This document shows positions 29,008 through 63,329 of a stretch of DNA of 64,000 nt, in pieces. Made by a program: the position numbers and the translations under genes. How positions within the stretch are numbered: position 1 is the first letter of the stretch; each line of letters starts with the position of its first letter. The notes below the pieces were generated by a model that was not told where the DNA came from, ran no database searches, and was given only the letters and a program-made list of their open reading frames with translations. The stretch is from Vicingaceae bacterium (GTDB taxonomy: Bacteria; Bacteroidota; Bacteroidia; Flavobacteriales_E; Vicingaceae). The stretch is taken from positions 806,001 through 870,000 of the forward strand of contig JAGYIE010000002.1 in NCBI GenBank assembly GCA_018402765.1, given 5' to 3'.

Positions 29008-32000
29008 ATGATAGAAAAATGCATGCATAAAATAGGTGATTCAGAACATCATCTATTTAAAACCAAAATCTCAAAAACGAAATCCATACCTTATTTTCTT
29101 AAACCGATACAATTAATATTCTTTATTATTGCATGTATTGGTCTAAATTTCAACTTAATTGGGCAAACTACCCAAGGACCCGCTCCAAAATGGATAACTG
29201 AGGAAGCCACCCAAGTGAAATGGGATGGAACTAACAAACCTGATCCTTCTGACCCAAATTATTTATATAGCGATGATTGGTGGTACAACCATATAAAACT
29301 ATATGATAATGGGGTTCATGTTGGTTATATTGCTTCGGGTTATTCTACTTGGGCAGATGCAAGCGTGCCTCTTTTAACTCAAAACAATTGCTTCCAATAC
29401 CCAACTAGTTCTACTTATTACGACTGTGAAGCTTTTGAATCGTCTACAAGAAAGCGAGGTATGCTTTCTCAAGTTGTTGCTAGGTATAGTTTAGATGGCG
29501 AAATGGTTTGGTGTAGAAGATTTAATCAAGATTCCTTTTTTGAGGCTATTCAAGATGATGATGGGAATATTGTTTTAGTTGGAATTACCTCCTATGTAAA
29601 AGATAAAAATGGAAATCCAATACGCTACAACCCAACTCCAAATTTTGCAGGCTTTGAGCTTAACTGTTTAACCGCCTCTAATTCTTATAGTAGAAAGCTA
29701 AACTTGGTAAAGATTGATATAAATGGAAATGAAGTTTTCAATTACATTTATGGGATGCAAAATGGAGGGGTTATTGGTTCTAGTCAATGGGAGAAGGAGC
29801 TTTCCGAAGGATGGAGCCTGATTCAATTTGGAAATACTTACCGTGTTGTTGGTCGAACACAAGACAATTCTGCATACACAGGTACTCCTATTAATTATGG
29901 TTTCATGATTGAAGTTAATAAAAGTGGAGAACTGCTGAACAAGCAAAAGTATAGTGGATACACGAGCGCTGACCAAATCTTTTACTATAACATCAAAAAT
30001 GGAAACGGTAACTTGCTATTAACCGGTAAGGCCTTTGACAATAGTACCGGTAGATGGAATGCAATAGTCCAATACTTTCCAGGAGGTAATTTTTCAAGCA
30101 ACCCTTCAAATGTGCGAGTTATTAATCCCTCTACAGATCCACAAAACCTAGATGCTGTTTCGATTTTTTCTCAGTTTTTAGAACAACAAGATATGTTTGT
30201 AGTGCCTGTAATGTATAACCGCCAAGGCGGAAGTTTTTCAGCAAAAGCGAATATAGACTTGCATTTTTTTGACGATAACTTTAGTACTACTGGTATGCCT
30301 TTAGTGAAAACTTTACCAGATCAGTACGCTGCTTTTGATTTAAAAATGAATTTGACTGAAGTTAACAATGGATTTATAACCGTTAGCTCAATTCAGAAAG
30401 TAGCACCATTATCTGATAATCATGTAAATAACATCTTGAATAACTTGTACCCTAATGGTGTGAATGGTGACTGCCCTTTGTGGTCAGATCAACCATCTCG
30501 AGATTTCTGGATGACCTATTGGAACAGCAATGCTATAGTAGAAAAATATACTTTTGATGCCAATAATAATGAATTTATAAAGGTTTGGGAAAGCACTTTT
30601 GATGTAGATAGTGACGATCGACAGTTCTTTCCGGGTGATATTAAAAAACAGGAATGCCTATATAGTATTACTACTGATGATGCTGATGGTTCAGTAGTAA
30701 TATCCGGTAATACGTCTAATAATTTTGATGATTATTATTTAGTAAAACTCTATCCTGATAATTGTATAGGGTTAAGTTATGATGAAAAAGATCTTGCTGA
30801 TAATATAATTGAAATCAATTCGAATACGGTATGGGCGAGTAGCAGAACGGTATTAGGGGAAGTTCGAATTAAGACAGGTAAAACGTTGACGATATCTGGT
30901 GCTAATACCGTAATAAAGTTTGCCGATTCTAAGCGCTCTGGTGTGAGAACTAGAATAGCGATAGAAGAAAAAGGTAAACTTATTGTTAATGATGCTAGAT
31001 TAACTAGTGATGATAGATGCGCTGAGGGTTTATGGGAAGGTATAGTTTTGGAAGGATCTAATACAATAGCTCCAATTTTAAACAACTTTAATACTCAACC
31101 TGTTGTAGAATTAAATAAAGCAACCATAGATAATGCAACAACTGCAATACGCTACGGAGCCGATGGCCAATACCGAAATTACAAAGGAATTATTAGAGCT
31201 GAAGATGCTACCTTTAGAGTTACTCGAAGAGCAGTGGAATTTTTAACGTATAAATTGCCTAACATCAGTTACTTTAAACGGTGCACATTTGAATTTATTC
31301 CGAGTATTACAGAGCAACCGATTAATTTAATTACGGCTTGGGATAATCACGGAGTTAAGTTTTATGGGTGTAGCTTTTTAGATAATACAGGTATAGATAA
31401 ATATTCACCTAATAATGCTAATGGTATTTACTCCATAGATGCAACCTACGAGGTAATGGCCGACTGCAATTCCTCTATTGTACCCTGCCCAACTGCTAAT
31501 AAAAGAAGAAGTGTATTTTACAACCTAAACCAAGGTATTTATGCTACAGGTGCGGGTGTAGGAAGCAGAACCATACGGGTAGAAGAAACCGACTTTTTCG
31601 ATAATAGTATGGGTATGCGGGTAGAAGCACTAAACAATGTTAGCTTTATTAAAAACTGGGTATTGACCGGAAATTCGGAGAAGGAGGGTTATTTATCTCA
31701 AATTGGTCAATATCAATTTGGATTCTATTCCGACAGAAGTTCTGGTTATGAGATAGAGCAAAATACCTTTGAAAAGTCAAGTACAGCTAGTTTTGCTGTT
31801 GCTGGTATTAACATTATCAATAGTGGCTCGGCACCAAATGAGGTGTACCGCAATAATTTTATAAGAAATGATATTGGCCAAAAGCTAGATGGAGAAAATA
31901 AGGACAGCAGAAATAATTGGGTGCAGTATTTTAGAGGGTTAGTTACCAAGTGTAATGATAATAGTAATGTAGGGCAAGATATTCAGGTAAATAAGATCCG

Positions 32001-33414
32001 AACAGGTATTCTTGGAGACGCTGATGGTATTAGTCAACGACAGGGTACAGCTCAAACTTCTGCAAGTAATCTCTTTAGTGCTTCTAATACTGTAGACATA
32101 GAAAACTTTAGTGCACAAAGTTTTCGGTATTATTATAACAATAATGCGGCTATCCAAGAGCCCATTGGAATTGTAGGAGCAGTAGCTAAAGTCCCAGTTG
32201 CTAATTCTGCACAATGTGCCACTAGGCATTTAAGACGGCGTGATGGAATGCATGAACTAGAATTAGCACCAAATATGGTGGCCAATTATTACAGTAAGCT
32301 GACCAATTATGAAGATATGCTGTACATATACTCTAGGCAAATTGATGGTGGGAATACGGATTCATTAATGCAAGCCATACAAATGACGTTTTCGGACGAT
32401 GCACAGAGCTTGCGGAATGATTTATTGGCACAAGCACCTTATTTATCTCAAGAGGCATTAATGGAAGCTGCATTTACCGGCCTATTGTCTGACGGGGTAT
32501 TGCTAGAGATTTGTTTAGCTAATCCGGAAGCTACCTACGGAGATAATTTTTTAAACGTATTAGAGTTTGACATTCCTAATCCACTTCCAGCCAATATGAT
32601 TCAAATCATCTATCAAAATTGGGACTCTGAAACACCTCGAAGTTTGTTTGAGGATCAATTAGCTGATTTAGATGTCGATTTAGGACGTATGGCCAGTCAA
32701 TTGATACACTATTATGCGTTAGATACGCTAGACCATACCGACAGCATAGAAAGTATTTTAGTTAGCCAAAACAGTCTTTATGCTGATTATCAACGGGTAG
32801 AATTAGCCATTGAGCAAGAAGATTTTACGAAAGCAACTGACGTATTAAATCTGATCGGGAGCGCTAACGAATTTGATGAAGAGGAGCTAGCAGAACATAT
32901 GAATTATCTAGATTATGTAACGTTTAGACAGTTGATAGCTGATAATGAAGGAGGTTATATGAAGTTAAATTCAAATCAGCTAAAAGATTTAAGAGACATC
33001 GCCTTTGCTACTCAAGGCCGTAGTGCAAAGATGGCACAGAATATTCTGTGTTTTGGGTATGATGAATGTGACTTTGAGGTACCAGCTGAACAATTTAGGA
33101 CAAGAGCTAGAAGAATGTATGACTTTGAAAATAAGGCAATTGTTAATACCACTAGTAGTAGAATGGATGCTGTGGTACATACCGTATATCCAAATCCTAC
33201 CAAGGAGCAAATTAGCATTAAAATAACTAACTTTAGTGAAGTAGAAAGTTATGAGGTGCAGCTAAGAGAAATCTCCGGAAAGCTACTCCTGCAGCAAGGC
33301 ATTGCTAGCCCAGAGCAAGCAATAAGTTTGAGCAACCTAGCGAAAGGCTCCTACTTGTTAGTGCTCTATAAGGATGGCTTACAAGTAGCAGAACAAGTAA
33401 TTGCAAAAAATTAA
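29008..33414 (+). CDS. Large secreted T9SS cargo protein with beta-helix region
   Basis: A 1468-residue exported protein. The hydrophobic signal segment (LIFFIIACIGLNFNLIGQ, about residues 37-54) is preceded by a long basic region, so the true start could be further in. Residues 80-600 resemble secreted surface proteins with repeated strand-turn units (VVARYSLDGEMVWCRRF, LVKIDINGNEVFNYIYG). Residues about 610-1000 look like a right-handed parallel beta-helix (VRIKTGKTLTISGANTVIKF, AEGLWEGIVLEGS). Residues 1080-1380 are largely helical. The C-terminus (VYPNPTKEQISIKI to AEQVIAKN) is a type-A T9SS sorting domain. It ends 4 nt before the first propeller copy. Function unknown; adhesion or polymer binding is a guess. 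Confidence 0.85.
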   Translation: MIEKCMHKIGDSEHHLFKTKISKTKSIPYFLKPIQLIFFIIACIGLNFNLIGQTTQGPAPKWITEEATQVKWDGTNKPDPSDPNYLYSDDWWYNHIKLYDNGVHVGYIASGYSTWADASVPLLTQNNCFQYPTSSTYYDCEAFESSTRKRGMLSQVVARYSLDGEMVWCRRFNQDSFFEAIQDDDGNIVLVGITSYVKDKNGNPIRYNPTPNFAGFELNCLTASNSYSRKLNLVKIDINGNEVFNYIYGMQNGGVIGSSQWEKELSEGWSLIQFGNTYRVVGRTQDNSAYTGTPINYGFMIEVNKSGELLNKQKYSGYTSADQIFYYNIKNGNGNLLLTGKAFDNSTGRWNAIVQYFPGGNFSSNPSNVRVINPSTDPQNLDAVSIFSQFLEQQDMFVVPVMYNRQGGSFSAKANIDLHFFDDNFSTTGMPLVKTLPDQYAAFDLKMNLTEVNNGFITVSSIQKVAPLSDNHVNNILNNLYPNGVNGDCPLWSDQPSRDFWMTYWNSNAIVEKYTFDANNNEFIKVWESTFDVDSDDRQFFPGDIKKQECLYSITTDDADGSVVISGNTSNNFDDYYLVKLYPDNCIGLSYDEKDLADNIIEINSNTVWASSRTVLGEVRIKTGKTLTISGANTVIKFADSKRSGVRTRIAIEEKGKLIVNDARLTSDDRCAEGLWEGIVLEGSNTIAPILNNFNTQPVVELNKATIDNATTAIRYGADGQYRNYKGIIRAEDATFRVTRRAVEFLTYKLPNISYFKRCTFEFIPSITEQPINLITAWDNHGVKFYGCSFLDNTGIDKYSPNNANGIYSIDATYEVMADCNSSIVPCPTANKRRSVFYNLNQGIYATGAGVGSRTIRVEETDFFDNSMGMRVEALNNVSFIKNWVLTGNSEKEGYLSQIGQYQFGFYSDRSSGYEIEQNTFEKSSTASFAVAGINIINSGSAPNEVYRNNFIRNDIGQKLDGENKDSRNNWVQYFRGLVTKCNDNSNVGQDIQVNKIRTGILGDADGISQRQGTAQTSASNLFSASNTVDIENFSAQSFRYYYNNNAAIQEPIGIVGAVAKVPVANSAQCATRHLRRRDGMHELELAPNMVANYYSKLTNYEDMLYIYSRQIDGGNTDSLMQAIQMTFSDDAQSLRNDLLAQAPYLSQEALMEAAFTGLLSDGVLLEICLANPEATYGDNFLNVLEFDIPNPLPANMIQIIYQNWDSETPRSLFEDQLADLDVDLGRMASQLIHYYALDTLDHTDSIESILVSQNSLYADYQRVELAIEQEDFTKATDVLNLIGSANEFDEEELAEHMNYLDYVTFRQLIADNEGGYMKLNSNQLKDLRDIAFATQGRSAKMAQNILCFGYDECDFEVPAEQFRTRARRMYDFENKAIVNTTSSRMDAVVHTVYPNPTKEQISIKITNFSEVESYEVQLREISGKLLLQQGIASPEQAISLSNLAKGSYLLVLYKDGLQVAEQVIAKN

Positions 33415-33418
33415 AACC

Positions 33419-34924
33419 ATGAAAAAGCTCCTATTTACAGGACTATTTTTAGTAATCGGATTGGGCAGTTATGCCCAATCCTTTTTATTAGATAGCACTT
33501 TTCAGCCTTTCTTTGATATTACTAAGCAAAGGGGAGCATTAATATCTGATATGCATGAAAGCAAAAGTGGAAAACTTTATATAACAGGTGACTTTTCTCT
33601 TCAATTACCACCACAAATAAATTCCTTTAACGGCATTATTTCTATATTTAGCGATGGAAGACGCAATTTTTCCTTTAATAATATTGGCGGAGGTGGTATA
33701 ATTGTGCCTATCTCAGATTCTGTATTTGTTAATGGTAATAATGCTTACGGATTAATAGATACAAATGGAAATAGATTTAATTATAATTGGTTGTTTAATT
33801 ATAATAAATCCATTAAATGTAAAACTGGCTCTCCCTACTTCTACCCTGACGGTTCTTCCCTATTTGCAAATGGAAGAGATAATACTGGCATGCCTTGCCC
33901 CACCATATATAATGGAGATACGCTTACACGGAGGCACATTCTAAAGCTTACACCTGAAGGGCTGTGGGACAGCACTTTTTCAGGTGATGCCAATTTTCCG
34001 CCTTTAGGCTTTGCTCCTTATGATAGTAACCGCATTTTAATTTATGGCTATCCGGGTAGGTTTACCCATTATAATGGGGTTCGGGTAAATGGCCTTTGTC
34101 GCATCTTTTTAGATGGAACGCTAGATACTACCTTTTCTTCTCCTTTACAGCCATTGGCATTCGGTAGTTTAGGTAGCCCTAATTTGGTCAATAAAGATGG
34201 CAGTTTTTTTCTTGTAGGGGCTTTTTATGTCAATGGTCACCCTGACCTAGTAACCATAGCAAAATTTAAAGCCAATGGAGAGCTAGATCCCTCCTTCATG
34301 AATTTTTCAGGTCCAACAGGTAACACTAATCTGGTTTATGGAGTTAGCACATTAGCTACTACTCAGGACGGTGGCTATTTAGTGGGTGGTGTTTTTAATA
34401 ATTATCAAGGCCATGCAAAGAATGGAATTGCTAAAATAGACTCTACCGGTAAATTAGAGCCCCATTATTTTGTTAATTCAGGTCCGGATAGTTCAGATTG
34501 GCAAGGTGTGGGTTTTCCTGCTGTCAACTTTATCTACCAATCGAAATTTGGTGGCTATTATGTAGGTGGTGATTTTAGAAAATGGAATGGAAAATCGGTA
34601 CAGCCCATTGTACGCATTACCGATTTGGTTACATCTATTAAAGAAAACCCTAGTTTGGCAGAAAAGGCCACCATTACGGCATTTCCAAATCCTTCTAATG
34701 GCAATTTTACTTTAGAAAGTGATCAACCCTTAAAAGAGCTCCGCCTTTTTGATCTATTGGGCAAAGAAGTGCTCGTTGTGCCTACTCCTTTTGAAAATAA
34801 TGGGAACCATAGCGGCACTAATCAACAATTGATTAACTTAACCCATCAAACAAAAGGAATTTATCTACTGCGTATTACACTAACGGATGGCAGTGTGGTG
34901 AGTAAAAAGGTAATTAAAAATTAA
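33419..34924 (+). CDS. T9SS-secreted DUF5122 (delta-60) beta-propeller protein, copy 1 (alpha/1/I)
   Basis: A 501-residue surface or secreted protein. Signal peptide 1-20 (MKKLLFTGLFLVIGLGSYAQ). Delta-60 repeats, each a strand pair ending in G-x-L/W-D-x-x-F, are seen at FLLDSTF, GLWDSTF, GTLDTTF, GELDPSF and GKLEPHYF, with blades such as GGYLVGGVFNNYQGHAKNG. Residues 419-501 (AFPNPSNGNF to SKKVIKN) are a type-A T9SS sorting domain. The frame is open from 33401, but the ATG at 33419 corresponds to the start of every other copy. Variable N-terminal module: residues 39-136, allele alpha. Central cassette: 253-378, type 1. Ligand unknown. Confidence 0.9.
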   Translation: MKKLLFTGLFLVIGLGSYAQSFLLDSTFQPFFDITKQRGALISDMHESKSGKLYITGDFSLQLPPQINSFNGIISIFSDGRRNFSFNNIGGGGIIVPISDSVFVNGNNAYGLIDTNGNRFNYNWLFNYNKSIKCKTGSPYFYPDGSSLFANGRDNTGMPCPTIYNGDTLTRRHILKLTPEGLWDSTFSGDANFPPLGFAPYDSNRILIYGYPGRFTHYNGVRVNGLCRIFLDGTLDTTFSSPLQPLAFGSLGSPNLVNKDGSFFLVGAFYVNGHPDLVTIAKFKANGELDPSFMNFSGPTGNTNLVYGVSTLATTQDGGYLVGGVFNNYQGHAKNGIAKIDSTGKLEPHYFVNSGPDSSDWQGVGFPAVNFIYQSKFGGYYVGGDFRKWNGKSVQPIVRITDLVTSIKENPSLAEKATITAFPNPSNGNFTLESDQPLKELRLFDLLGKEVLVVPTPFENNGNHSGTNQQLINLTHQTKGIYLLRITLTDGSVVSKKVIKN

Positions 34925-34928
34925 AACC

Positions 34929-36434
34929 ATGAAAAAGCTCCTATTTACAGGACTATTTTTAGTAATCGGATTGGGCAGTTATGCCCAATCCTTTTTATTA
35001 GATAGCACTTTTCAGCCTTTCTTTGATATTACTAAGCAAAGGGGAGCATTAATATCTGATATGCATGAAAGCAAAAGTGGAAAACTTTATATAACAGGTG
35101 ACTTTTCTCTTCAATTACCACCACAAATAAATTCCTTTAACGGCATTATTTCTATATTTAGCGATGGAAGACGCAATTTTTCCTTTAATAATATTGGCGG
35201 AGGTGGTATAATTGTGCCTATCTCAGATTCTGTATTTGTTAATGGTAATAATGCTTACGGATTAATAGATACAAATGGAAATAGATTTAATTATAATTGG
35301 TTGTTTAATTATAATAAATCCATTAAATGTAAAACTGGCTCTCCCTACTTCTACCCTGACGGTTCTTCCCTATTTGCAAATGGAAGAGATAATACTGGCA
35401 TGCCTTGCCCCACCATATATAATGGAGATACGCTTACACGGAGGCACATTCTAAAGCTTACACCTGAAGGGCTGTGGGACAGCACTTTTTCAGGTGATGC
35501 CAATTTTCCGCCTTTAGGCTTTGCTCCTTATGATAGTAACCGCATTTTAATTTATGGCTATCCGGGTAGGTTTACCCATTATAATGGGGTTCGGGTAAAT
35601 GGCCTTTGTCGCATCTTTTTAGATGGAACGCTAGATACTACCTTTTCTTCTCCTTTACAGCCATTGGCATTCGGTAGTTTAGGTAGACCTAATTTGGTCA
35701 ATAAAGATGGGAGCTTTTTTCTTGTGGGATTTTTTTTTATAAATGGACATAATAGTCAAATTACTATCGCCAAACTGAAGGCCAATGGAGAGCTAGATTC
35801 TTCCTTCATGAATTTTTCATCTCCTAAAGATCTCGTTTATAATTCCGGTTCAGTTGCTACAATGGCTGAGTTACCTGACAAAGGATATTTAGTAGGTGGA
35901 TTTTTTAATGACTATCAAGGCCACAAGTTACCATCCATTGCTAAAATAGATTCTGTAGGTAAAGTAGACCCTACCTACTTTATAAATTCAGGTCCTGATA
36001 GTTCTGACCAAGATGGAGTCGGATTTGCTACAGTCAACGTGATCTACAAATCAAAATTCGGTGGCTATTATGTAGGTGGTGATTTTAGAAAATGGAATGG
36101 AAAATCGGTACAGCCCATTGTACGCATTACCGATTTGGTTACATCTATTAAAGAAAACCCTAGTTTGGCAGAAAAGGCCACCATTACGGCATTTCCAAAT
36201 CCTTCTAATGGCAATTTTACTTTAGAAAGTGATCAACCCTTAAAAGAGCTCCGCCTTTTTGATCTATTGGGCAAAGAAGTGCTCGTTGTGCCTACTCCTT
36301 TTGAAAATAATGGGAACCATAGCGGCACTAATCAACAATTGATTAACTTAACCCATCAAACAAAAGGAATTTATCTACTGCGTATTACACTAACGGATGG
36401 CAGTGTGGTGAGTAAAAAGGTAATTAAAAATTAA
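34929..36434 (+). CDS. T9SS-secreted DUF5122 beta-propeller protein, copy 2 (alpha/2/I)
   Basis: 501 residues, starting 4 nt after copy 1. It is the same as copy 1 up to residue 252, including the alpha N-terminal module (ALISDMHESKSGKLYITGDF). At residue 253 it switches from SPNLV to RPNLV and carries the type 2 central cassette (FFLVGFFFINGHNSQITIAK, GSVATMAELPDKGYLVGGFF). From residue 379 it returns to the constant sequence and sorting domain I. Copies 1 and 2 therefore differ almost only in the cassette, as expected from a single block exchange. Confidence 0.9.
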   Translation: MKKLLFTGLFLVIGLGSYAQSFLLDSTFQPFFDITKQRGALISDMHESKSGKLYITGDFSLQLPPQINSFNGIISIFSDGRRNFSFNNIGGGGIIVPISDSVFVNGNNAYGLIDTNGNRFNYNWLFNYNKSIKCKTGSPYFYPDGSSLFANGRDNTGMPCPTIYNGDTLTRRHILKLTPEGLWDSTFSGDANFPPLGFAPYDSNRILIYGYPGRFTHYNGVRVNGLCRIFLDGTLDTTFSSPLQPLAFGSLGRPNLVNKDGSFFLVGFFFINGHNSQITIAKLKANGELDSSFMNFSSPKDLVYNSGSVATMAELPDKGYLVGGFFNDYQGHKLPSIAKIDSVGKVDPTYFINSGPDSSDQDGVGFATVNVIYKSKFGGYYVGGDFRKWNGKSVQPIVRITDLVTSIKENPSLAEKATITAFPNPSNGNFTLESDQPLKELRLFDLLGKEVLVVPTPFENNGNHSGTNQQLINLTHQTKGIYLLRITLTDGSVVSKKVIKN

Positions 36435-36438
36435 AACC

Positions 36439-37962
36439 ATGAAAAAGCTCCTATTTACAGGACTATTTTTAGTAATCGGAATGGGCAGTTATGCCCAATC
36501 CTTTTTATTAGATAGCACTTTTCAGCCTTTTTTTGACATTACCAAACAGAGGGGAGCAGTGATGAACAGTATATTTGAAAATGAAATAACGAGCTCAATT
36601 TATTTAGTAGGTACTTTTAAAAGTTATTTTAATCAAATACCTTACGAAGGAGTAGTCTCTTATAAAAGAAGTGGTTCACTCAATTTTAATTTTAGTAGTA
36701 ATATTGGAGGAACATCTACTAGAACCTACATTCACTCTATTTCTGATACTTATTTTTATACTTCTAGTGTTGGTATTGGTAATATAACAGATACTATGGG
36801 CATGTATAACTACATTTATCCAAATTGGAGATCCAATGCATTTAAAACTGCAAAGTGCGGTACTGGCTCTCCCTACTTCTACCCAGATGGTTCTTCACTA
36901 TTTGCGAATGGAAGAGATAATACTGGCATGCCTTGCCCCACCATATATAATGGAGATACGCTTACACGGAGGCACATTCTAAAGCTTACACCTGAAGGGC
37001 TGTGGGACAGCACTTTTTCAGGTGATGCCAATTTTCCGCCTTTAGGCTTTGCTCCTTATGATAGTAACCGCATTTTAATTTATGGCTATCCGGGTAGGTT
37101 TACCCATTATAATGGGGTTCGGGTAAATGGCCTTTGTCGCATCTTTTTAGATGGAACGCTAGATACTACCTTTTCTTCTCCTTTACAGCCATTGGCATTC
37201 GGTAGTTTAGGTAGCCCTAATTTGGTCAATAAAGATGGCAGTTTTTTTCTTGTAGGGGCTTTTTATGTCAATGGTCACCCTGACCTAGTAACCATAGCAA
37301 AATTTAAAGCCAATGGAGAGCTAGATCCCTCCTTCATGAATTTTTCAGGTCCAACAGGTAACACTAATCTGGTTTATGGAGTTAGCACATTAGCTACTAC
37401 TCAGGACGGTGGCTATTTAGTGGGTGGTGTTTTTAATAATTATCAAGGCCATGCAAAGAATGGAATTGCTAAAATAGACTCTACCGGTAAATTAGAGCCC
37501 CATTATTTTGTTAATTCAGGTCCGGATAGTTCAGATTGGCAAGGTGTGGGTTTTCCTGCTGTCAACTTTATCTACCAATCGAAATTTGGTGGCTATTATG
37601 TAGGTGGTGATTTTAGAAAATGGAATGGAAAATCGGTACAGCCCATTGTACGCATTACCGATTTGGTTACATCTATTAAAGAAAACCCTAGTTTGGCAGA
37701 AAAGGCCACCATTACGGCATTTCCAAATCCTTCTAATGGCAATTTTACTTTAGAAAGTGATCAACCCTTAAAAGAGCTCCGCCTTTTTGATCTATTGGGC
37801 AAAGAAGTGCTCGTTGTGCCTACTCCTTTTGAAAATAATGGGAACCATAGCGGCACTAATCAACAATTGATTAACTTAACCCATCAAACAAAAGGAATTT
37901 ATCTACTGCGTATTACACTAACGGATGGCAGTGTGGTGAGTAAAAAGGTAATTAAAAATTAA
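36439..37962 (+). CDS. T9SS-secreted DUF5122 beta-propeller protein, copy 3 (beta/1/I)
   Basis: 507 residues. Its N-terminal module is unique in the array (AVMNSIFENEITSSIYLVGT, FSSNIGGTSTRTYIHSISD, MGMYNYIYPNWRSNAFK), allele beta, and six residues longer. Constant sequence resumes at GTGSPYFYPDGSSLF. The central cassette is type 1, matching copies 1 and 5, and the sorting domain is type I. The signal peptide carries the GMG variant and the following codons use FDITKQR with synonymous changes shared with copies 4 and 5, a clue that the 5' end was exchanged as a unit. Confidence 0.9.
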   Translation: MKKLLFTGLFLVIGMGSYAQSFLLDSTFQPFFDITKQRGAVMNSIFENEITSSIYLVGTFKSYFNQIPYEGVVSYKRSGSLNFNFSSNIGGTSTRTYIHSISDTYFYTSSVGIGNITDTMGMYNYIYPNWRSNAFKTAKCGTGSPYFYPDGSSLFANGRDNTGMPCPTIYNGDTLTRRHILKLTPEGLWDSTFSGDANFPPLGFAPYDSNRILIYGYPGRFTHYNGVRVNGLCRIFLDGTLDTTFSSPLQPLAFGSLGSPNLVNKDGSFFLVGAFYVNGHPDLVTIAKFKANGELDPSFMNFSGPTGNTNLVYGVSTLATTQDGGYLVGGVFNNYQGHAKNGIAKIDSTGKLEPHYFVNSGPDSSDWQGVGFPAVNFIYQSKFGGYYVGGDFRKWNGKSVQPIVRITDLVTSIKENPSLAEKATITAFPNPSNGNFTLESDQPLKELRLFDLLGKEVLVVPTPFENNGNHSGTNQQLINLTHQTKGIYLLRITLTDGSVVSKKVIKN

Positions 37963-37966
37963 AACC

Positions 37967-39469
37967 ATGAAAAAGCTCCTATTTACAGGACTATTTTTAG
38001 TAATCGGATTGGGCAGTTATGCCCAATCCTTTTTATTAGATAGCACTTTTCAGCCTTTTTTTGACATTACCAAACAGAGAAGAGCAATGATTGATGATAT
38101 GATTGAGTTGCCATCAGGAAACACAATTATTACTGGAACTTTTCAGATTAATATAAGTAATCGGTCATTTACAGGGTCTGTATCTTTAAAGAGTTATGGC
38201 AGTAATAATTTTAATTTTGTAGGCTCAACAGGTGGAAATGGCCTGATTAGACTTATATCAGATTCAGTTTATGTAATTGGGTATAATTCTTATGTTCAGA
38301 GGGACACGAATGGAATTGGAGTTAATTCCCTTTGGAGAGTTAATAGTTTGAAATCTGTAAGGTGTGGAACAGGTTCACTTTACTTCTACGCAGACGGTTC
38401 TTCCCTATTTGCAAATGGAAGAGATAATACTGGCATGCCTTGCCCCACCATATATAATGGAGATACGCTTACACGGAGGCACATTCTAAAGCTTACACCT
38501 GAAGGGCTGTGGGACAGCACTTTTTCAGGTGATGCCAATTTTCCGCCTTTAGGCTTTGCTCCTTATGATAGTAACCGCATTTTAATTTATGGCTATCCGG
38601 GTAGGTTTACCCATTATAATGGGGTTCGGGTAAATGGCCTTTGTCGCATCTTTTTAGATGGAACGCTAGATACTACCTTTTCTTCTCCTTTACAGCCATT
38701 GGCATTCGGTAGTTTAGGTAGACCTAATTTGGTCAATAAAGATGGGAGCTTTTTTCTTGTGGGATTTTTTTTTATAAATGGACATAATAGTCAAATTACT
38801 ATCGCCAAACTGAAGGCCAATGGAGAGCTAGATTCTTCCTTCATGAATTTTTCATCTCCTAAAGATCTCGTTTATAATTCCGGTTCAGTTGCTACAATGG
38901 CTGAGTTACCTGACAAAGGATATTTAGTAGGTGGATTTTTTAATGACTATCAAGGCCACAAGTTACCATCCATTGCTAAAATAGATTCTGTAGGTAAAGT
39001 AGACCCTACCTACTTTATAAATTCAGGTCCTGATAGTTCTGACCAAGATGGAGTCGGATTTGCTACAGTCAACGTGATCTACAAATCAAAATTCGGTGGC
39101 TATTATGTAGGTGGTGATTTTAGAAAATGGAATGGAAAATCGGTACAGCCCATTGTACGCATTACCGATTTGGTTACATCTATTAAAGAAAACCCTAGTT
39201 TGGCAGAAAAGGCCACCATTACGGCATTTCCAAATCCTTCTAATGGCAATTTTACTTTAGAAAGTGATCAACCCTTAAAAGAGCTCCGCCTTTTTGATCT
39301 ATTGGGCAAAGAAGTGCTCGTTGTGCCTACTCCTTTTGAAAATAATGGGAACCATAGCGGCACTAATCAACAATTGATTAACTTAACCCATCAAACAAAA
39401 GGAATTTATCTACTGCGTATTACACTAACGGATGGCAGTGTGGTGAGTAAAAAGGTAATTAAAAATTAA
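37967..39469 (+). CDS. T9SS-secreted DUF5122 beta-propeller protein, copy 4 (gamma/2/I)
   Basis: 500 residues. N-terminal module gamma (AMIDDMIELPSGNTIITGTF, RSFTGSVSLKSYGSNNFNF, SLWRVNSLKSVRCGTGSLYF). The constant middle block follows, then the type 2 cassette as in copy 2 and sorting domain I. So copy 4 joins the N-terminus of copy 5 to the rest of copy 2. It starts 4 nt after copy 3 and is followed 4 nt later by copy 5. Confidence 0.9.
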   Translation: MKKLLFTGLFLVIGLGSYAQSFLLDSTFQPFFDITKQRRAMIDDMIELPSGNTIITGTFQINISNRSFTGSVSLKSYGSNNFNFVGSTGGNGLIRLISDSVYVIGYNSYVQRDTNGIGVNSLWRVNSLKSVRCGTGSLYFYADGSSLFANGRDNTGMPCPTIYNGDTLTRRHILKLTPEGLWDSTFSGDANFPPLGFAPYDSNRILIYGYPGRFTHYNGVRVNGLCRIFLDGTLDTTFSSPLQPLAFGSLGRPNLVNKDGSFFLVGFFFINGHNSQITIAKLKANGELDSSFMNFSSPKDLVYNSGSVATMAELPDKGYLVGGFFNDYQGHKLPSIAKIDSVGKVDPTYFINSGPDSSDQDGVGFATVNVIYKSKFGGYYVGGDFRKWNGKSVQPIVRITDLVTSIKENPSLAEKATITAFPNPSNGNFTLESDQPLKELRLFDLLGKEVLVVPTPFENNGNHSGTNQQLINLTHQTKGIYLLRITLTDGSVVSKKVIKN

Positions 39470-39473
39470 AACC

Positions 39474-40976
39474 ATGAAAAAGCTCCTATTTACAGGACTA
39501 TTTTTAGTAATCGGAATGGGCAGTTATGCCCAATCCTTTTTATTAGATAGCACTTTTCAGCCTTTTTTTGACATTACCAAACAGAGAAGAGCAATGATTG
39601 ATGATATGATTGAGTTGCCATCAGGAAACACAATTATTACTGGAACTTTTCAGATTAATATAAGTAATCGGTCATTTACAGGGTCTGTATCTTTAAAGAG
39701 TTATGGCAGTAATAATTTTAATTTTGTAGGCTCAACAGGTGGAAATGGCCTGATTAGACTTATATCAGATTCAGTTTATGTAATTGGGTATAATTCTTAT
39801 GTTCAGAGGGACACGAATGGAATTGGAGTTAATTCCCTTTGGAGAGTTAATAGTTTGAAATCTGTAAGGTGTGGAACAGGTTCACTTTACTTCTACGCAG
39901 ACGGTTCTTCCCTATTTGCAAATGGAAGAGATAATACTGGCATGCCTTGCCCCACCATATATAATGGAGATACGCTTACACGGAGGCACATTCTAAAGCT
40001 TACACCTGAAGGGCTGTGGGACAGCACTTTTTCAGGTGATGCCAATTTTCCGCCTTTAGGCTTTGCTCCTTATGATAGTAACCGCATTTTAATTTATGGC
40101 TATCCGGGTAGGTTTACCCATTATAATGGGGTTCGGGTAAATGGCCTTTGTCGCATCTTTTTAGATGGAACGCTAGATACTACCTTTTCTTCTCCTTTAC
40201 AGCCATTGGCATTCGGTAGTTTAGGTAGCCCTAATTTGGTCAATAAAGATGGCAGTTTTTTTCTTGTAGGGGCTTTTTATGTCAATGGTCACCCTGACCT
40301 AGTAACCATAGCAAAATTTAAAGCCAATGGAGAGCTAGATCCCTCCTTCATGAATTTTTCAGGTCCAACAGGTAACACTAATCTGGTTTATGGAGTTAGC
40401 ACATTAGCTACTACTCAGGACGGTGGCTATTTAGTGGGTGGTGTTTTTAATAATTATCAAGGCCATGCAAAGAATGGAATTGCTAAAATAGACTCTACCG
40501 GTAAATTAGAGCCCCATTATTTTGTTAATTCAGGTCCGGATAGTTCAGATTGGCAAGGTGTGGGTTTTCCTGCTGTCAACTTTATCTGCAAATCAAAATT
40601 TGGTGGCTATTATGTAGGTGGTGATTTTAGAAAATGGAATGGAAAATCGGTACAGCCCATTGTACGCATTACCGATTTGGTTACGTCTATTAAAGAAAAC
40701 CCTAGTTTGGCAGAAAAGGCCACCATTACGGCATTTCCAAATCCTTCTAATGGCAATTTTACTTTATCAAGTGATGAACCCATCAATGATTTACATCTTT
40801 TTAATCTATTGGGTAAAGAAGTCGGCTACATTCCCTCACCTTCAGAAAGTAATGGGAACCATAGCGGCACTAATCAACAATTGATTAACTTAACCCATCA
40901 AACAAAAGGAATTTATCTACTGCGTATTACACTAACGGATGGCAGTGTGGTGAGTAAAAAGGTAATTAAAAATTAA
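39474..40976 (+). CDS. T9SS-secreted DUF5122 beta-propeller protein, copy 5 (gamma/1/II)
   Basis: 500 residues. It shares module gamma with copy 4 and cassette type 1 with copies 1 and 3. At the end of the cassette it reads FICKSKFGG instead of FIYQSKFGG, a hybrid with type 2 sequence. Its sorting domain differs from about residue 430 to 460 (TLSSDEPINDLHLFNLLGKE, VGYIPSPSESNG) before returning to the common C-terminus. It is the last intact copy; the altered sorting domain may mark the ancestral 3' end of the array. Confidence 0.9.
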   Translation: MKKLLFTGLFLVIGMGSYAQSFLLDSTFQPFFDITKQRRAMIDDMIELPSGNTIITGTFQINISNRSFTGSVSLKSYGSNNFNFVGSTGGNGLIRLISDSVYVIGYNSYVQRDTNGIGVNSLWRVNSLKSVRCGTGSLYFYADGSSLFANGRDNTGMPCPTIYNGDTLTRRHILKLTPEGLWDSTFSGDANFPPLGFAPYDSNRILIYGYPGRFTHYNGVRVNGLCRIFLDGTLDTTFSSPLQPLAFGSLGSPNLVNKDGSFFLVGAFYVNGHPDLVTIAKFKANGELDPSFMNFSGPTGNTNLVYGVSTLATTQDGGYLVGGVFNNYQGHAKNGIAKIDSTGKLEPHYFVNSGPDSSDWQGVGFPAVNFICKSKFGGYYVGGDFRKWNGKSVQPIVRITDLVTSIKENPSLAEKATITAFPNPSNGNFTLSSDEPINDLHLFNLLGKEVGYIPSPSESNGNHSGTNQQLINLTHQTKGIYLLRITLTDGSVVSKKVIKN

Positions 40977-40980
40977 AACC

Positions 40981-41067
40981 ATGAAAAAGCTCCTATTTGC
41001 AGGACTATTTTTAGTAATAGGATTGGGCAGTTATGCCCAATCCTTTTTATTAGATAGCACTTTTTAG
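40981..41067 (+). pseudogene. Truncated sixth propeller copy
   Basis: After the standard AACC spacer the sequence encodes MKKLLFAGLFLVIGLGSYAQ then SFLLDSTF and a TAG stop where the other copies have CAG (Gln). Similarity to the array ends within a few bases after the stop. The signal peptide has its own differences (T8A and a silent change), so it is older than the near-identical blocks. It is a remnant, not a likely functional peptide. Confidence 0.85.
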
Positions 41068-59219: not shown

Positions 59220-61118
59220 ATGAAAAAGAATTACTTTTTAATAGCTGGTTTGATGTTGGCTTCAGTAGCTTCTTTTGCTCAGCAGAGCAGAATAGAAGCA
59301 AATGAGGTTCCGATGAAACCAGCTCCTGTTTCAGCAGAAGAATTAAAGTATAATGAAATTTCTAATGTTTCAAAGGCAGAAGGAGATACATTATTTTACG
59401 AAGACTTTGGTGGCGGATTTTCAACCAATGGTTGGACTTCAGTTGACCCATCTCAAAATGGATTTGATTGGATTTACACTACTGCAGCTCCCGGAGGACA
59501 GTATTCGTCGACCATTCCAGTAATAGCTTCTGCTACTGCAGCGAATGGTTTCCTTTCTATGCCTTCAGATTTTTATAACACACCAACTCCTGCAGGTGGT
59601 TTTGCAGGAATGTCAGCTGTAGTTACTTCAGGTCCTATTGCTATTAATCCCGTTGGAAACGTTATTATCAAGTGGAAACAAGCGCAAAGATATTGTTGTG
59701 CATCTACAGAACAGTTAGAACTTCAAGTTTCTACTGATAACGTAACTTTCGTTGCTTTTGATGCGAAGTTTGGTCGTCAAGCGAATACTAACGTTACTGA
59801 AGACGCCGAGATTAACATCTCATCAGTTGCTGCTAACGAGGATACTATTTATCTTAGATTCTTCCAATCATCTTCTCACTATTTTTGGATGATTGATGAT
59901 ATCGCAATCGTAGAAGGTCCTGGTAATCAATTGGTAGTTAATAAAGGTTTTTCTACTTTTGGTTCTGATTTGTTCGAAGGATATTATTCTATAACTCCTT
60001 TAGCTTTGACTCAGGCATTGAGTTTTCAAGCTGCTGTTCAAAATGATGGTGGTTTCAATGCGCCTAATACTGGTATTACACTTTCTATTGATGAGGCCAC
60101 ATTAGGTAATGTTTACTTAGATTCTTCTGCTAAAATAGCGTCTTTACCTACTCCACTTGGTATAGATACTTTTGAAGTAGTAACTCCTTTTGCGAACACT
60201 TCAGGTAATGGAGATTATACTGCTACCATTACTGCTACCTCTGATTCAGGTAGTGCAGATCCAGGCAGAGCAACATATGCTTTCCCATGGTCTATTTCTG
60301 ATACCGTATTGGCAAAAGATTTTGACAACAATGGCGGTAATATTGGACCGGGTTCATATGTTGGTGGTGATAATGACGGATCTAAAATGGCAACTAAGTT
60401 TACGTTGAAGTCAGCACAGACTGTAACTTCAGTTTCTTATTTCATCTCTACATCTACAGCTAACGTAGGCGCTGAAATGAAAGCACAAGTATGGGGATTC
60501 GATACTTCACAAGCTACGTTAAATGATGCAATTAATGTTGCTGGAATTAAGGCGCAAAACCCAATTCCTTACATTGTTCAATCTACAGATGTAGGTACTT
60601 GGTTAACTATTCCTATGTTGCCTCCTGCTGTTTTACCTGCAGGTCAGTATGTAGTAGTTGCTGAGCAATCAGCAGGTAATGCAAATGGATTTGAGTTAGG
60701 TTTTGGTAGAGCAAGAGATGCTGAAGAATTCCAACCTTTTGGTCTCCAATTTGTTTCTATGGTGTACGCTAATGATGCATCTCCTTCATGGGGTAACATT
60801 TTTGCTCAACCAATGATGAGAATGAACTTTGGTTTGTTAGCACCTGTAGGTGTTGATGAGTCTGCAAAAGCTATTGAAGGCTTTACAGTGTCTCCAAACC
60901 CAAACAATGGTCAGTTTAATGTAACAGTTAATGCTGCTAAAGCTAACTTTAACTTAAGCGTTCGTAACATGGTAGGTCAAGTTGTTTACAACGAAGCTAT
61001 CGCAGTTAACAACATATTGACTAAAAACATCGATTTATCGAACTTAAATAAAGGTATTTACTTTGTTTCTATCGAAAACGGTGTGAACAGAAAAGTTCAA
61101 AAAGTGATTATCAAGTAA
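59220..61118 (+). CDS. T9SS-secreted protein with choice-of-anchor-type N-terminal domain, paralogue 1
   Basis: 632-residue exported protein, signal peptide ending SVASFAQ (about residue 21). Residues 55-235 form a jelly-roll-like domain beginning GDTLFYEDFGGGFSTNGW and ending WMIDDIAIVEGPGNQL, with a CC pair in QRYCCASTEQLELQ. A middle region of Ig-like strands and a second repeated block follow (GPGSYVGGDNDGSKM, KAQVWGFDTSQATL). Residues about 555-632 (VSPNPNNGQFNVTVN to KVQKVIIK) are a type-A sorting domain. Near -7 element TAACTTTA at 59174-59181. First of three tandem paralogues. Confidence 0.87.
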   Translation: MKKNYFLIAGLMLASVASFAQQSRIEANEVPMKPAPVSAEELKYNEISNVSKAEGDTLFYEDFGGGFSTNGWTSVDPSQNGFDWIYTTAAPGGQYSSTIPVIASATAANGFLSMPSDFYNTPTPAGGFAGMSAVVTSGPIAINPVGNVIIKWKQAQRYCCASTEQLELQVSTDNVTFVAFDAKFGRQANTNVTEDAEINISSVAANEDTIYLRFFQSSSHYFWMIDDIAIVEGPGNQLVVNKGFSTFGSDLFEGYYSITPLALTQALSFQAAVQNDGGFNAPNTGITLSIDEATLGNVYLDSSAKIASLPTPLGIDTFEVVTPFANTSGNGDYTATITATSDSGSADPGRATYAFPWSISDTVLAKDFDNNGGNIGPGSYVGGDNDGSKMATKFTLKSAQTVTSVSYFISTSTANVGAEMKAQVWGFDTSQATLNDAINVAGIKAQNPIPYIVQSTDVGTWLTIPMLPPAVLPAGQYVVVAEQSAGNANGFELGFGRARDAEEFQPFGLQFVSMVYANDASPSWGNIFAQPMMRMNFGLLAPVGVDESAKAIEGFTVSPNPNNGQFNVTVNAAKANFNLSVRNMVGQVVYNEAIAVNNILTKNIDLSNLNKGIYFVSIENGVNRKVQKVIIK

Positions 61119-61442
61119 TTTGATATTGCATTAAATTATAATCGATTTATTCGATTGAAGAGGCCCTAAGTGAAAACTTAGGGCTTTTTTTGTGAGTAGG
61201 TCTGTTATTTTTTATTTGGCTGAATTCTGGAAATTTTCACTAAAATGAGGTTAAATAGTTTTTGTGTTTATCAAGTAATGTAAGCTCTTAGAGCTTTAAG
61301 TATAATAGTTCTAGGAATTTTATCGGCCATTTGAAATTACATGAAAGCAGCAAATAGTTTGTATTAAGTGTCTTGTAAAATGTAAGGTATTGTTTTGTCA
61401 AGAAATTGCGCTATATTTAACTAATTACTTAATCTAAATCTT
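61119..61442. other. Intergenic region between secreted paralogues 1 and 2
   Basis: 324 bp. It holds the terminator at 61163-61191 and a near -7 element TATATTTA at 61412-61419 with a TTTG about 14 nt upstream. An eight-codon frame MKAANSLY occurs at about 61341; its first 11 bases match the start of the leader frame at 28842, probably by chance. Nothing else recognised. Confidence 0.5.
61163..61191 (+). terminator. Strong intrinsic terminator after paralogue 1
   Basis: A perfect 9-bp stem GCCCTAAGT/ACTTAGGGC (61163-61171 with 61176-61184) with a GAAA tetraloop, then seven T. Confidence 0.92.
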
Positions 61443-63329
61443 ATGAAGAAGAATTACACCTTTTTATTTCTTTTTGCTATTGCTTCAATAGCAAATGCTC
61501 AACAAAGTATCTTAAGTGGGCTACCTTTAGAAATGTTAGAACAGCCAACGTCATTTGAAGAAATTAAAAATTCAGTAGTTTCAACTACCTCTAAAGCCTC
61601 TGGTGACACCCTTTGGTATGAAGACTTTTCAGGTGGATTTGGAACCAACGGTTGGGTGCCTTTTGACGCCGGTTCAAATGGATTTGACTGGATCTATACT
61701 ACTCAACCTCCTGGTGGGCAATACGCAACAAATGTACCTGCTATCCAATCGACCACTGGGACAAATGGTTTCGCATCCTTACCGTCTAGTTTTTACAATA
61801 CGCCAACGCCTGTGGCAGGATGGGTAAATATGGCAGCCTTGTTATCTTCAGGCCCAATTACAATTCCACCAACTGGAAATGTTCTTATTCGATGGCAGCA
61901 ATCACAGCGATTTTGTTGCTCAAGTAACACTGCCCGACTAGAGCTTTCTGTTAGCACAGATAGCATCAATTGGGTTGCATTTGATGCCCGATTTGGTAGA
62001 GGTGCTAATACTGCAGTATTTGAAAATGCAGAAATCAATATTTCTTCTGTAGCAGCAAATCAAGATACTATTTATCTGAGGTGGTATCAAGGAGAAACTA
62101 GAAATTATTACTGGATGATTGATGATATCGCCATTGTGGAAGGGCCAGGAAATCAGTTAGAGATTACAGAGGTGTTTACGAGTTTTGGTAATGATCAATA
62201 TGAGGGATATTATGCCCAAGTGCCCGTAGGTCAAACCCAACCGTTAACCTTTGGTGCAACCATTCGAAATACAGGTGGTTTTAATGCTACTAACGTAGAT
62301 TTAGAGGTTGCAGTGTCTAAAACTGTTGTAGGCGAGGTGTTTAACGACTCTTCAGCTAGTGTTGGTTTGCTTGCTCCTTTACAAGATGATACCTTTGATG
62401 TAGTTACTCCTTATGGAAATAATGATGGACCTGGAGCATATACCGCAACTTTATTTGCACGAGCTGATTCTGCAAGTGGAATCCCTTTAAAAGCAACTTA
62501 TAGTATCCCATGGATTATATCTGATAGCGTTTTTGCTAAAGATTTTGGTAATGCTGGTGGATCTATCGGACCGGGTTCTTATGTAGGTGGTGATAATGAT
62601 GGATCACGAATTGGAACAAAATACACCTTGACTCAGTCTTGGCAAGTTAACTCCCTTTCTTATTATATTACCAATACTGCTGATAATGTAGGCGTAGAAA
62701 TTAAAGCTAAAATTTGGGGATTTGATACATCTCAGTCTACTGTAGATCAAATGATATCTGTGCCGGGGATTAAAGCACAAAATCCGATTCCTTACATAAT
62801 CCAGCAATCTGATTTGGGAACTTGGATAACCCTATCTATGCTTCCATATGTAACATTACCTGCTGGTCAATATGTGGCAGCAATAGAGCAGTCTGCAGGA
62901 AATGCAAATAATCAAGAATTAAGAATTGGTAGAGCAACCGATATTGAAGAATTGCAGCCGTATGGAAACAACTTTTCTTCTTTTGTTTATGCAAATGATG
63001 CCACTCCTAATTGGGGAAATATTTTTGCTCAGCCGATGATTCGAATGAACATAGATATTCCAACAAGTATAAAAGAAAATACCAAAGCTTTTGAATCGAA
63101 TATTGTGCCAAATCCTTCAAGCGGTCAATTCTCTATCCGTATGAATGAGCAAGTGAATGTAAATTCTATTCAAGTTTTCAGTATAGAAGGGAAGCAAGTA
63201 CATTTTATGCCCATTGGACAAACGACTCAACTGATAGAAATGGATTTAAACGAATTGGACAAAGGAGTTTATTTCCTTCAAATTAATTCAGAACAAAATC
63301 GAGTGGTTGAAAAAATTGTGATTCAATAG
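61443..63329 (+). CDS. T9SS-secreted protein with choice-of-anchor-type N-terminal domain, paralogue 2
   Basis: 628 residues, collinear with paralogue 1. Signal peptide MKKNYTFLFLFAIASIANAQ. It shares GDTLWYEDFSGGFGTNGW, GFDWIYTTQPPGGQY, QRFCCSSNTARLEL, YYWMIDDIAIVEGPGNQL, GPGSYVGGDNDGSR and WGFDTSQST. The C-terminal sorting domain begins at IVPNPSSGQFSI and ends VEKIVIQ. The two proteins have diverged throughout, unlike the propeller array, so this duplication is older. It has its own promoter-like and terminator sequences, so each copy is a separate unit. Confidence 0.87.
   Translation: MKKNYTFLFLFAIASIANAQQSILSGLPLEMLEQPTSFEEIKNSVVSTTSKASGDTLWYEDFSGGFGTNGWVPFDAGSNGFDWIYTTQPPGGQYATNVPAIQSTTGTNGFASLPSSFYNTPTPVAGWVNMAALLSSGPITIPPTGNVLIRWQQSQRFCCSSNTARLELSVSTDSINWVAFDARFGRGANTAVFENAEINISSVAANQDTIYLRWYQGETRNYYWMIDDIAIVEGPGNQLEITEVFTSFGNDQYEGYYAQVPVGQTQPLTFGATIRNTGGFNATNVDLEVAVSKTVVGEVFNDSSASVGLLAPLQDDTFDVVTPYGNNDGPGAYTATLFARADSASGIPLKATYSIPWIISDSVFAKDFGNAGGSIGPGSYVGGDNDGSRIGTKYTLTQSWQVNSLSYYITNTADNVGVEIKAKIWGFDTSQSTVDQMISVPGIKAQNPIPYIIQQSDLGTWITLSMLPYVTLPAGQYVAAIEQSAGNANNQELRIGRATDIEELQPYGNNFSSFVYANDATPNWGNIFAQPMIRMNIDIPTSIKENTKAFESNIVPNPSSGQFSIRMNEQVNVNSIQVFSIEGKQVHFMPIGQTTQLIEMDLNELDKGVYFLQINSEQNRVVEKIVIQ

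What the first reader, a model, noticed from the sequence alone, without database searches (positions are those of the whole stretch)
33419..41067. Mosaic tandem array of secreted beta-propeller genes: a possible surface-variation locus
Five intact, in-frame, about 1.5-kb genes lie head to tail with the same 4-nt spacer. They are identical by eye over long blocks, including silent positions, yet carry sharply bounded variable modules at the N-terminus (three alleles), centre (two) and sorting domain (two). Combinations are alpha/1/I, alpha/2/I, beta/1/I, gamma/2/I and gamma/1/II. That pattern needs block exchange, not just duplication. The products are predicted to be exported by T9SS to the cell surface or medium. 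A recombining repertoire of DUF5122 propellers is, to my knowledge, not a described variation system; the function is inference.
Basis: partly seen in the sequence, partly recalled or inferred. Interest (0 to 1): 0.88.

Follow-up and report, generated by a model that had tools for sequence, protein, structure and literature searches.

The report
Mosaic tandem array of secreted propellers
Five back-to-back copies of a gene for an exported propeller-shaped protein have clearly swapped blocks of sequence with one another, so this marine-type bacterium carries a home-made set of mix-and-match surface or secreted proteins; whether the set still reshuffles today, and what it is for, is not shown.

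Summary
Five intact genes (33419-40976), each followed by the same 4-nt AACC spacer, are 100% identical over long blocks. Between the blocks lie three sharply bounded modules: N (alpha/alpha/beta/gamma/gamma), C (1/2/1/2/1) and sorting-domain (I/I/I/I/II). Silent sites are near saturation inside the N and C modules (dS 0.9-1.7; 0.7 in the sorting-domain module) but carry essentially no differences outside them. The combinations alpha1, alpha2, gamma1 and gamma2 all occur, so recombination is required. A decayed sixth leader closes the array. Three near-identical rRNA operons in a row elsewhere in the genome point to long-read assembly, so an artefact is unlikely.

The products are T9SS cargo with a probable seven-bladed DUF5122 propeller, in an operon behind a 1468-aa T9SS protein. 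That gene pair recurs at two other loci of this genome and in another genus (G016), where the propeller is also duplicated.

A second tandem T9SS array in the same genome, and one in another genus, show the same signature. A third tandem T9SS family in the window does not.

Best reading: unequal crossover and gene conversion through shared blocks, giving an Opa-like reassorted, probably co-expressed repertoire. No silent store was found. Active variation is untested. New variant of a known kind.

The parts
29008..33414 (+). 1468-aa T9SS cargo protein (Por_Secre_tail); first gene of the operon; stop 4 nt before copy 1
   Evidence: the same gene pair recurs at G000:C1, G000:C10 and G016:C4
33419..34924 (+). 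copy 1: DUF5122 propeller, modules alpha / 1 / I, 501 aa
34929..36434 (+). copy 2: modules alpha / 2 / I, 501 aa
36439..37962 (+). copy 3: modules beta / 1 / I, 507 aa
37967..39469 (+). copy 4: modules gamma / 2 / I, 500 aa
39474..40976 (+). copy 5: modules gamma / 1 / II, 500 aa
40977..41067 (+). remnant sixth copy: AACC spacer plus leader only, ending at an in-frame TAG, then unrelated sequence
   Evidence: (family D12)
33511..33868 (+). module N of copy 1 (approximate; within alignment cols 93-476, roughly propeller blades 1-2); equivalent stretches in copies 2-5
34177..34549 (+). module C of copy 1 (approximate; alignment cols 785-1157, roughly blades 5-6); equivalent stretches in copies 2-5
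40767..40850 (+). tail module II of copy 5 (approximate; alignment cols 1323-1405, inside the sorting domain)
33869..35020 (+). example of a long exact shared block: 1152 bp here are repeated exactly at an offset of 3038; the longest is 1194 bp, 35358-36551 repeated at an offset of 3035

Best explanation
A tandem multigene family of T9SS-secreted beta-propellers that has been amplified and reassorted by ordinary homologous recombination (unequal crossover and gene conversion) acting through the blocks the copies share. Shown: the unit is CDS + AACC; the shared blocks (leader, a ~300-bp middle block, and the 3' end + spacer + next leader) carry essentially no silent divergence; the modules between them are old, with silent sites near saturation, and occur in several reassorted combinations. 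Inferred: the array was founded by duplication of the propeller gene behind the 1468-aa gene, using the short sequence AAAAATTAAAACC that ends both genes. Recombination within the shared blocks then homogenised the framework and swapped blade pairs 1-2 and 5-6. All five products are made together from one operon, exported by T9SS, and give the cell a small repertoire of related propellers with different binding faces (ligand, glycan, phage or partner recognition; the target is unknown). Copy number and module order should change at the rate of recombination between kb-scale direct repeats, without a dedicated switching enzyme.
For: Module map and near-zero divergence outside modules. dS 0.94-1.66 in N and about 1.05 in C, against none in the shared blocks. 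Permutation, four-gamete and PHI-like tests. Exact repeats up to 1194 bp. Junction homology between the upstream gene end and the copy ends, and the remnant sixth leader. DUF5122 + Por_Secre_tail. Propeller fold over residues 20-408, Z 17-18 to propeller chains, on a weak model. Same operon pair elsewhere, propeller duplicated in G016. Same silent-site signature in a second array of this genome and in G024. A RecA-like ORF is present (L082 340-1362; named from its sequence by my own knowledge). Three rRNA operons in a row, repeats of 7.3 kb at 99.97% differing only by indels, imply long-read assembly.
Against: Adaptive diversification is not shown: average dN/dS of modules is 0.23-0.57, i.e. 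no sign of positive selection. Another tandem T9SS family (window 59220-63329 and beyond) is not homogenised, so tandem T9SS genes do not automatically behave this way. No strain comparison or reads were available. Co-transcription is inferred from the 4-nt spacers only. The structure model is of low confidence (pLDDT 57).
Confidence: 0.66

Rival explanations
1. An active, selected antigenic or phase-variation locus: cells in one clone continually reshuffle modules so that surface propellers differ between siblings, for example to escape phage or predators.
For: Mutation-free shared blocks imply recent exchange. Direct repeats of 421-1194 bp favour frequent RecA recombination. A second array in the genome has the same signature.
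Against: No silent cassettes elsewhere; all copies intact with 4-nt spacers, so no obvious way to show one variant at a time; no promoter consensus inside the array; no positive selection on average; no data on within-clone variation.
Confidence: 0.15
2. Neutral concerted evolution: old tandem paralogues whose most conserved parts (leader, middle blades, sorting domain) are homogenised by gene conversion because they are similar, while diverged parts escape conversion. The mosaic has no function of its own beyond gene dosage.
For: Across genera the same middle block is the better conserved part (41-57% aa) and N the worse (24-44%). 3' ends are homogenised in the mosaic arrays examined, including G016 and G024. 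dN/dS below 1.
Against: Conversion of conserved parts alone leaves each copy with its own N and C alleles; the reassorted combinations alpha1/alpha2/gamma1/gamma2 need exchange of modules too. The 630-aa tandem family is not homogenised.
Confidence: 0.3
3. Import of diverged modules from related strains or species by transformation into a recently amplified, otherwise identical array.
For: dS near or above 1 in modules beside no divergence in the shared blocks is also what imported blocks would give. The N-module tree does not hold the three alleles together with support.
Against: Each N allele is closer in identity to the other two (43-55%) than to any homologue found (at most 44%); C alleles 1 and 2 form a clade with 98/98 support. 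No donor sequence was found.
Confidence: 0.2
4. Assembly artefact: a chimeric consensus of repeats or of several strains.
For: A 16-contig draft assembly; contig C12 ends inside a repeat.
Against: Three near-identical rRNA operons in a row are resolved inside one contig, differing by indels only, which short reads would not be expected to give. All ORFs are intact; the longest exact repeat (1.2 kb) is easily spanned by long reads. Contamination estimate 0.05%.
Confidence: 0.06

Closest known systems
Opa proteins of Neisseria (PMC13183285, PMC2265424)
   Same: Several complete genes per genome with a constant framework and discrete variable regions (SV, HV1, HV2) reassorted by recombination and gene conversion within the genome; surface proteins.
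   Different: Opa genes are dispersed and switched individually by phase variation of their reading frame. Here the genes are one head-to-tail operon of T9SS propellers, with no phase-variable repeat seen. No homology.
Tandem leucine-rich-repeat genes of Flavobacterium psychrophilum (PMC8400371)
   Same: Flavobacterial tandem array of repeat-protein genes, resolved by long reads, copy number differing between strains.
   Different: Different protein fold; module reassortment between copies was not reported in the passages I read; no strain data exist here.
Gingipain and HagA adhesin domains of Porphyromonas gingivalis (PMC5266723)
   Same: T9SS-exported surface proteins diversified by domain rearrangement, allelic exchange and gene conversion in Bacteroidota.
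   Different: Large proteinases and adhesins; not a tandem operon of near-identical propeller genes.
DUF5122 (PF17164) propellers
   Same: Sequence family of the products; predicted propeller also in PMC8078820.
   Different: No described mosaic tandem array of this family was found in the paper library.

Membership tests
T9SS type A cargo | Signal peptide and C-terminal Por_Secre_tail/TIGR04183 domain above cut-off | tested here: met
   PF18962 45-47 bits (cut-off 27), TIGR04183 41-42 bits (cut-off 23) in the three copies tested; all five over the cut-off in the genome search; leader ending ...YAQ by sequence
T9SS type A cargo | Actual secretion or surface attachment | not testable with these tools
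   needs fractionation or surface labelling
DUF5122 beta-propeller | PF17164 repeats above gathering score | tested here: met
   57-67 bits against cut-off 27, three stretches per protein
DUF5122 beta-propeller | Seven-bladed propeller fold | tested here: inconclusive
   Z 17-18, rmsd 3.6-4.3 over residues ~20-408 to propeller chains, but model pLDDT only 57 and Foldseek TM at most 0.4 on the query
delta-60 repeat (TIGR02608) | score above the NCBIfam cut-off | tested here: not met
   26 bits against cut-off 76.5
Recombinational antigenic variation with silent cassettes (pilS/vls type) | one expression site and incomplete silent donor copies | tested here: not met
   five complete ORFs with 4-nt spacers; no other DNA-similar copies in the genome apart from short weak matches on C1; the remnant sixth leader holds no variable module
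Site-specific DNA inversion/shufflon system | inverted repeats at fixed borders and an adjacent recombinase | tested here: inconclusive
   all copies are direct repeats; borders differ between allele pairs (cols 455/476); no recombinase recognised among the neighbouring ORFs examined, but the whole window was not scanned against profiles
Opa-like reassorted repertoire | shuffled discrete variable regions among intact paralogues of one genome | tested here: met
   N x C combinations alpha1, alpha2, gamma1, gamma2; a working analogy only, not homology
Opa-like reassorted repertoire | independent phase-variable expression of each locus | tested here: inconclusive
   no promoter consensus in the array and no coding repeat seen; 4-nt spacers suggest one operon
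Opa-like reassorted repertoire | repertoire differs between strains or within a clone | not testable with these tools
   one genome per species is held; no reads

The most novel reading that the evidence does not exclude
A family-wide (Vicingaceae-like) recombination-driven diversification strategy: several tandem T9SS operons per genome keep identical leaders, middle blocks and sorting domains as recombination anchors while exchanging passenger modules, generating shifting sets of secreted propellers within populations.
Probability: 0.2. Interest if true: 0.75.

Novelty: new variant of a known kind. Interest (0 to 1): 0.5.

Why it matters
Most of the many T9SS cargo proteins in free-living Bacteroidota have no known role. 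An array in which shared blocks have no silent divergence while the modules between them are near saturation is a clear natural record of modular protein exchange. It gives a directly testable question: do such arrays turn over within populations, and do swapped blades change what the protein binds? If yes, environmental flavobacteria would have a surface-diversification route so far known mainly from pathogens.

Tried and rejected
Silent copies elsewhere in the genome: none by DNA beyond short weak matches on C1. Plasmid relatives: only distant or sorting-domain matches. RNA families and tRNAs in the window: none. Bacteroidota promoter consensus: 5 matches where 5.55 are expected, none in the array. 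Positive selection on modules: average dN/dS below 1. Ancestry of the N alleles: tree unresolved, one clade not rejected (p-AU 0.29). Short-read assembly chimera: judged unlikely on the rRNA evidence. Order-wide search meant to count such arrays: only 46 genomes of the order are held, 8 with the family, tandem copies only in G000 and G016.

Full report
CHECK. Aligning them at nucleotide level gives 1532 columns, 384 variable. Variable columns fall into module N (93-476), module C (785-1157) and a tail module (1323-1405). Outside these there is one shared difference (col 43, Leu/Met) and a few private to copy 5. Thus copies 1 and 3 are identical for 1056 bp of coding sequence, copies 2 and 4 for 1077 bp, copies 4 and 5 for 741 bp; including spacers the longest exact repeats are 1194 and 1152 bp. 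The allele strings are alpha/1/I, alpha/2/I, beta/1/I, gamma/2/I, gamma/1/II. The array ends in a sixth copy cut to its leader, with a CAG-to-TAG change and other decay.

IS IT RECOMBINATION? Yes. Module alleles differ at 0.46-0.67 of synonymous sites (dS 0.7-1.7), amino-acid identity 43-70%, while the blocks between them show essentially none. Point mutation alone cannot give both. All four N x C combinations of alpha/gamma with 1/2 exist. Runs of agreement (up to 206 of 350 variable sites; permutation maximum 33), 11,574 incompatible site pairs, at least two recombination events by the Hudson-Kaplan bound, and a PHI-like statistic of 0.052 against 0.494 all agree. Average dN/dS of about 0.23-0.57 gives no sign of positive selection.

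IS IT AN ARTEFACT? Unlikely. The same assembly holds three rRNA operons in a row in one contig, repeats of 7.3 kb at 99.97% identity differing only by indels, which implies long reads. Completeness is 99.78% and contamination 0.05%. I have no reads, so spanning reads were not seen.

WHAT THE GENES ARE. The copies tested carry DUF5122 repeats and a T9SS type A sorting domain well over the curated cut-offs. The genome holds about 90 such sorting domains over the cut-off. A model from a shallow alignment has low confidence (pLDDT 57), yet residues 20-408 match propeller chains, mostly WD40, at Z 17-18. With seven blades over about 390 residues, module N covers about blades 1-2 and module C about blades 5-6 (inference). 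The array follows a 1468-aa T9SS protein with a 4-nt gap. The same pair (large T9SS protein, then propeller) occurs at G000:C1 and G000:C10 with single propellers of 40-43% identity, and at G016:C4 with two propellers. In G016 the spacer between the propellers also resembles the junction after the upstream gene, as here, where both genes end in AAAAATTAAAACC before ATG. Duplication of 'CDS plus spacer' through that short homology is an inference.

SURROUNDINGS AND CONTROLS. A second tandem array of this genome, G000:C10 near 480-490 kb, has three units of a lipoprotein-like gene and a ~512-aa T9SS gene. Exact blocks of 766-1114 bp border modules with roughly 50-80% identity, and which two units agree changes along the unit. 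Silent divergence runs from 0 at the ends to 0.6-0.9 in the centre. In genus g4, G024:C91 has three tandem T9SS genes with homogenised ends. The G016 propeller pair is homogenised only over its last ~40 codons. By contrast, four tandem ~630-aa T9SS genes at and beyond the window's right end (from 59220) share only 71-76% identity in parts, with no identical blocks. So the signature recurs but is not automatic.

ORIGIN OF MODULES. Each N allele is nearer the other two (43-55%) than any other homologue (at most 44%), and the C alleles form a supported clade. The N tree is unresolved; one clade is neither supported nor rejected (p-AU 0.29). Old paralogues reassorted within the lineage is the simplest reading; import from near relatives is possible.

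ORGANISM. One relative (G013) has a contig of the same length (244,972 bp) as the MAG record labelled Flavobacteriales bacterium UBA1494. The placeholder genus UBA1494 was placed in Vicingaceae, a family of sea- and freshwater flavobacteria (PMC7214798). The window's genome is in the same family code; the family name is therefore inferred.

MECHANISM. Shown: exchange through homologous blocks, fresh framework, old modules, no silent store found. Inferred: RecA-dependent unequal crossover and conversion; co-transcription; a repertoire of propellers with different faces. Not shown: that variation occurs within a clone, that it is selected, or what the proteins bind.

COMPARISON. It works like the Opa repertoire of Neisseria (intact genes, discrete variable regions shuffled by intragenomic recombination; PMC13183285) but is not homologous, is in one operon, and shows no phase-variable repeats. 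In Bacteroidota, tandem LRR arrays whose copy number differs between F. psychrophilum strains (PMC8400371) and domain rearrangement of T9SS adhesins in P. gingivalis (PMC5266723) are the nearest described cases. I found no report of mosaic DUF5122 arrays, within an open-access library only. Hence: a new variant of a known kind, with interest mainly because it is a very clean case, recurs in the genome, and is easily tested.

Noticed in passing
L078 8214-17852 (G000:C10:480213-489851): Second mosaic tandem array in the same genome: three units of a ~338-aa lipoprotein-like protein and a ~512-aa T9SS protein, exact blocks up to 1114 bp beside diverged modules; partial units flank it.
   Followed up: partly
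L045 7243-11879 (G024:C91): Three tandem ~515-aa T9SS genes in another genus, 3' ends without silent divergence, centres near saturation; a fourth gene shares the leader.
   Followed up: partly
window 59220-63329 and beyond (L079 5221-13329): Four tandem ~630-aa T9SS genes, 71-76% identical in parts, not homogenised: a useful negative control.
   Followed up: partly
L029 about 11000; L044 6307-7778; L063 about 213: In genus g12 (UBA1494) the three single propeller homologues found all carry a frameshift (near GGGGG in G013) or in-frame stops (G022, G058): pseudogenes, sequencing errors or programmed changes.
   Followed up: partly
L036 1689-8311, L037 3606-8704, L038 7613-14518: Recurrent gene pair: large T9SS protein immediately followed by the propeller, suggesting the two products act together.
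   Followed up: partly
window 29008-33414: The upstream 1468-aa protein reads propeller-like in its first half and beta-helix-like in the middle (by eye); only its sorting domain is recognised by Pfam.
   Followed up: no
L100 (G000:C1:752500-769500): Three rRNA operons in direct tandem, 5.2-5.5 kb apart, near identical and differing only by indels.
   Followed up: yes
L080 7568-15438 (end of contig C12): Contig ends inside a second copy of a 2221-aa T9SS gene whose last 987 bp are 98% identical to the first, so a further long tandem repeat is probably unresolved.
   Followed up: no
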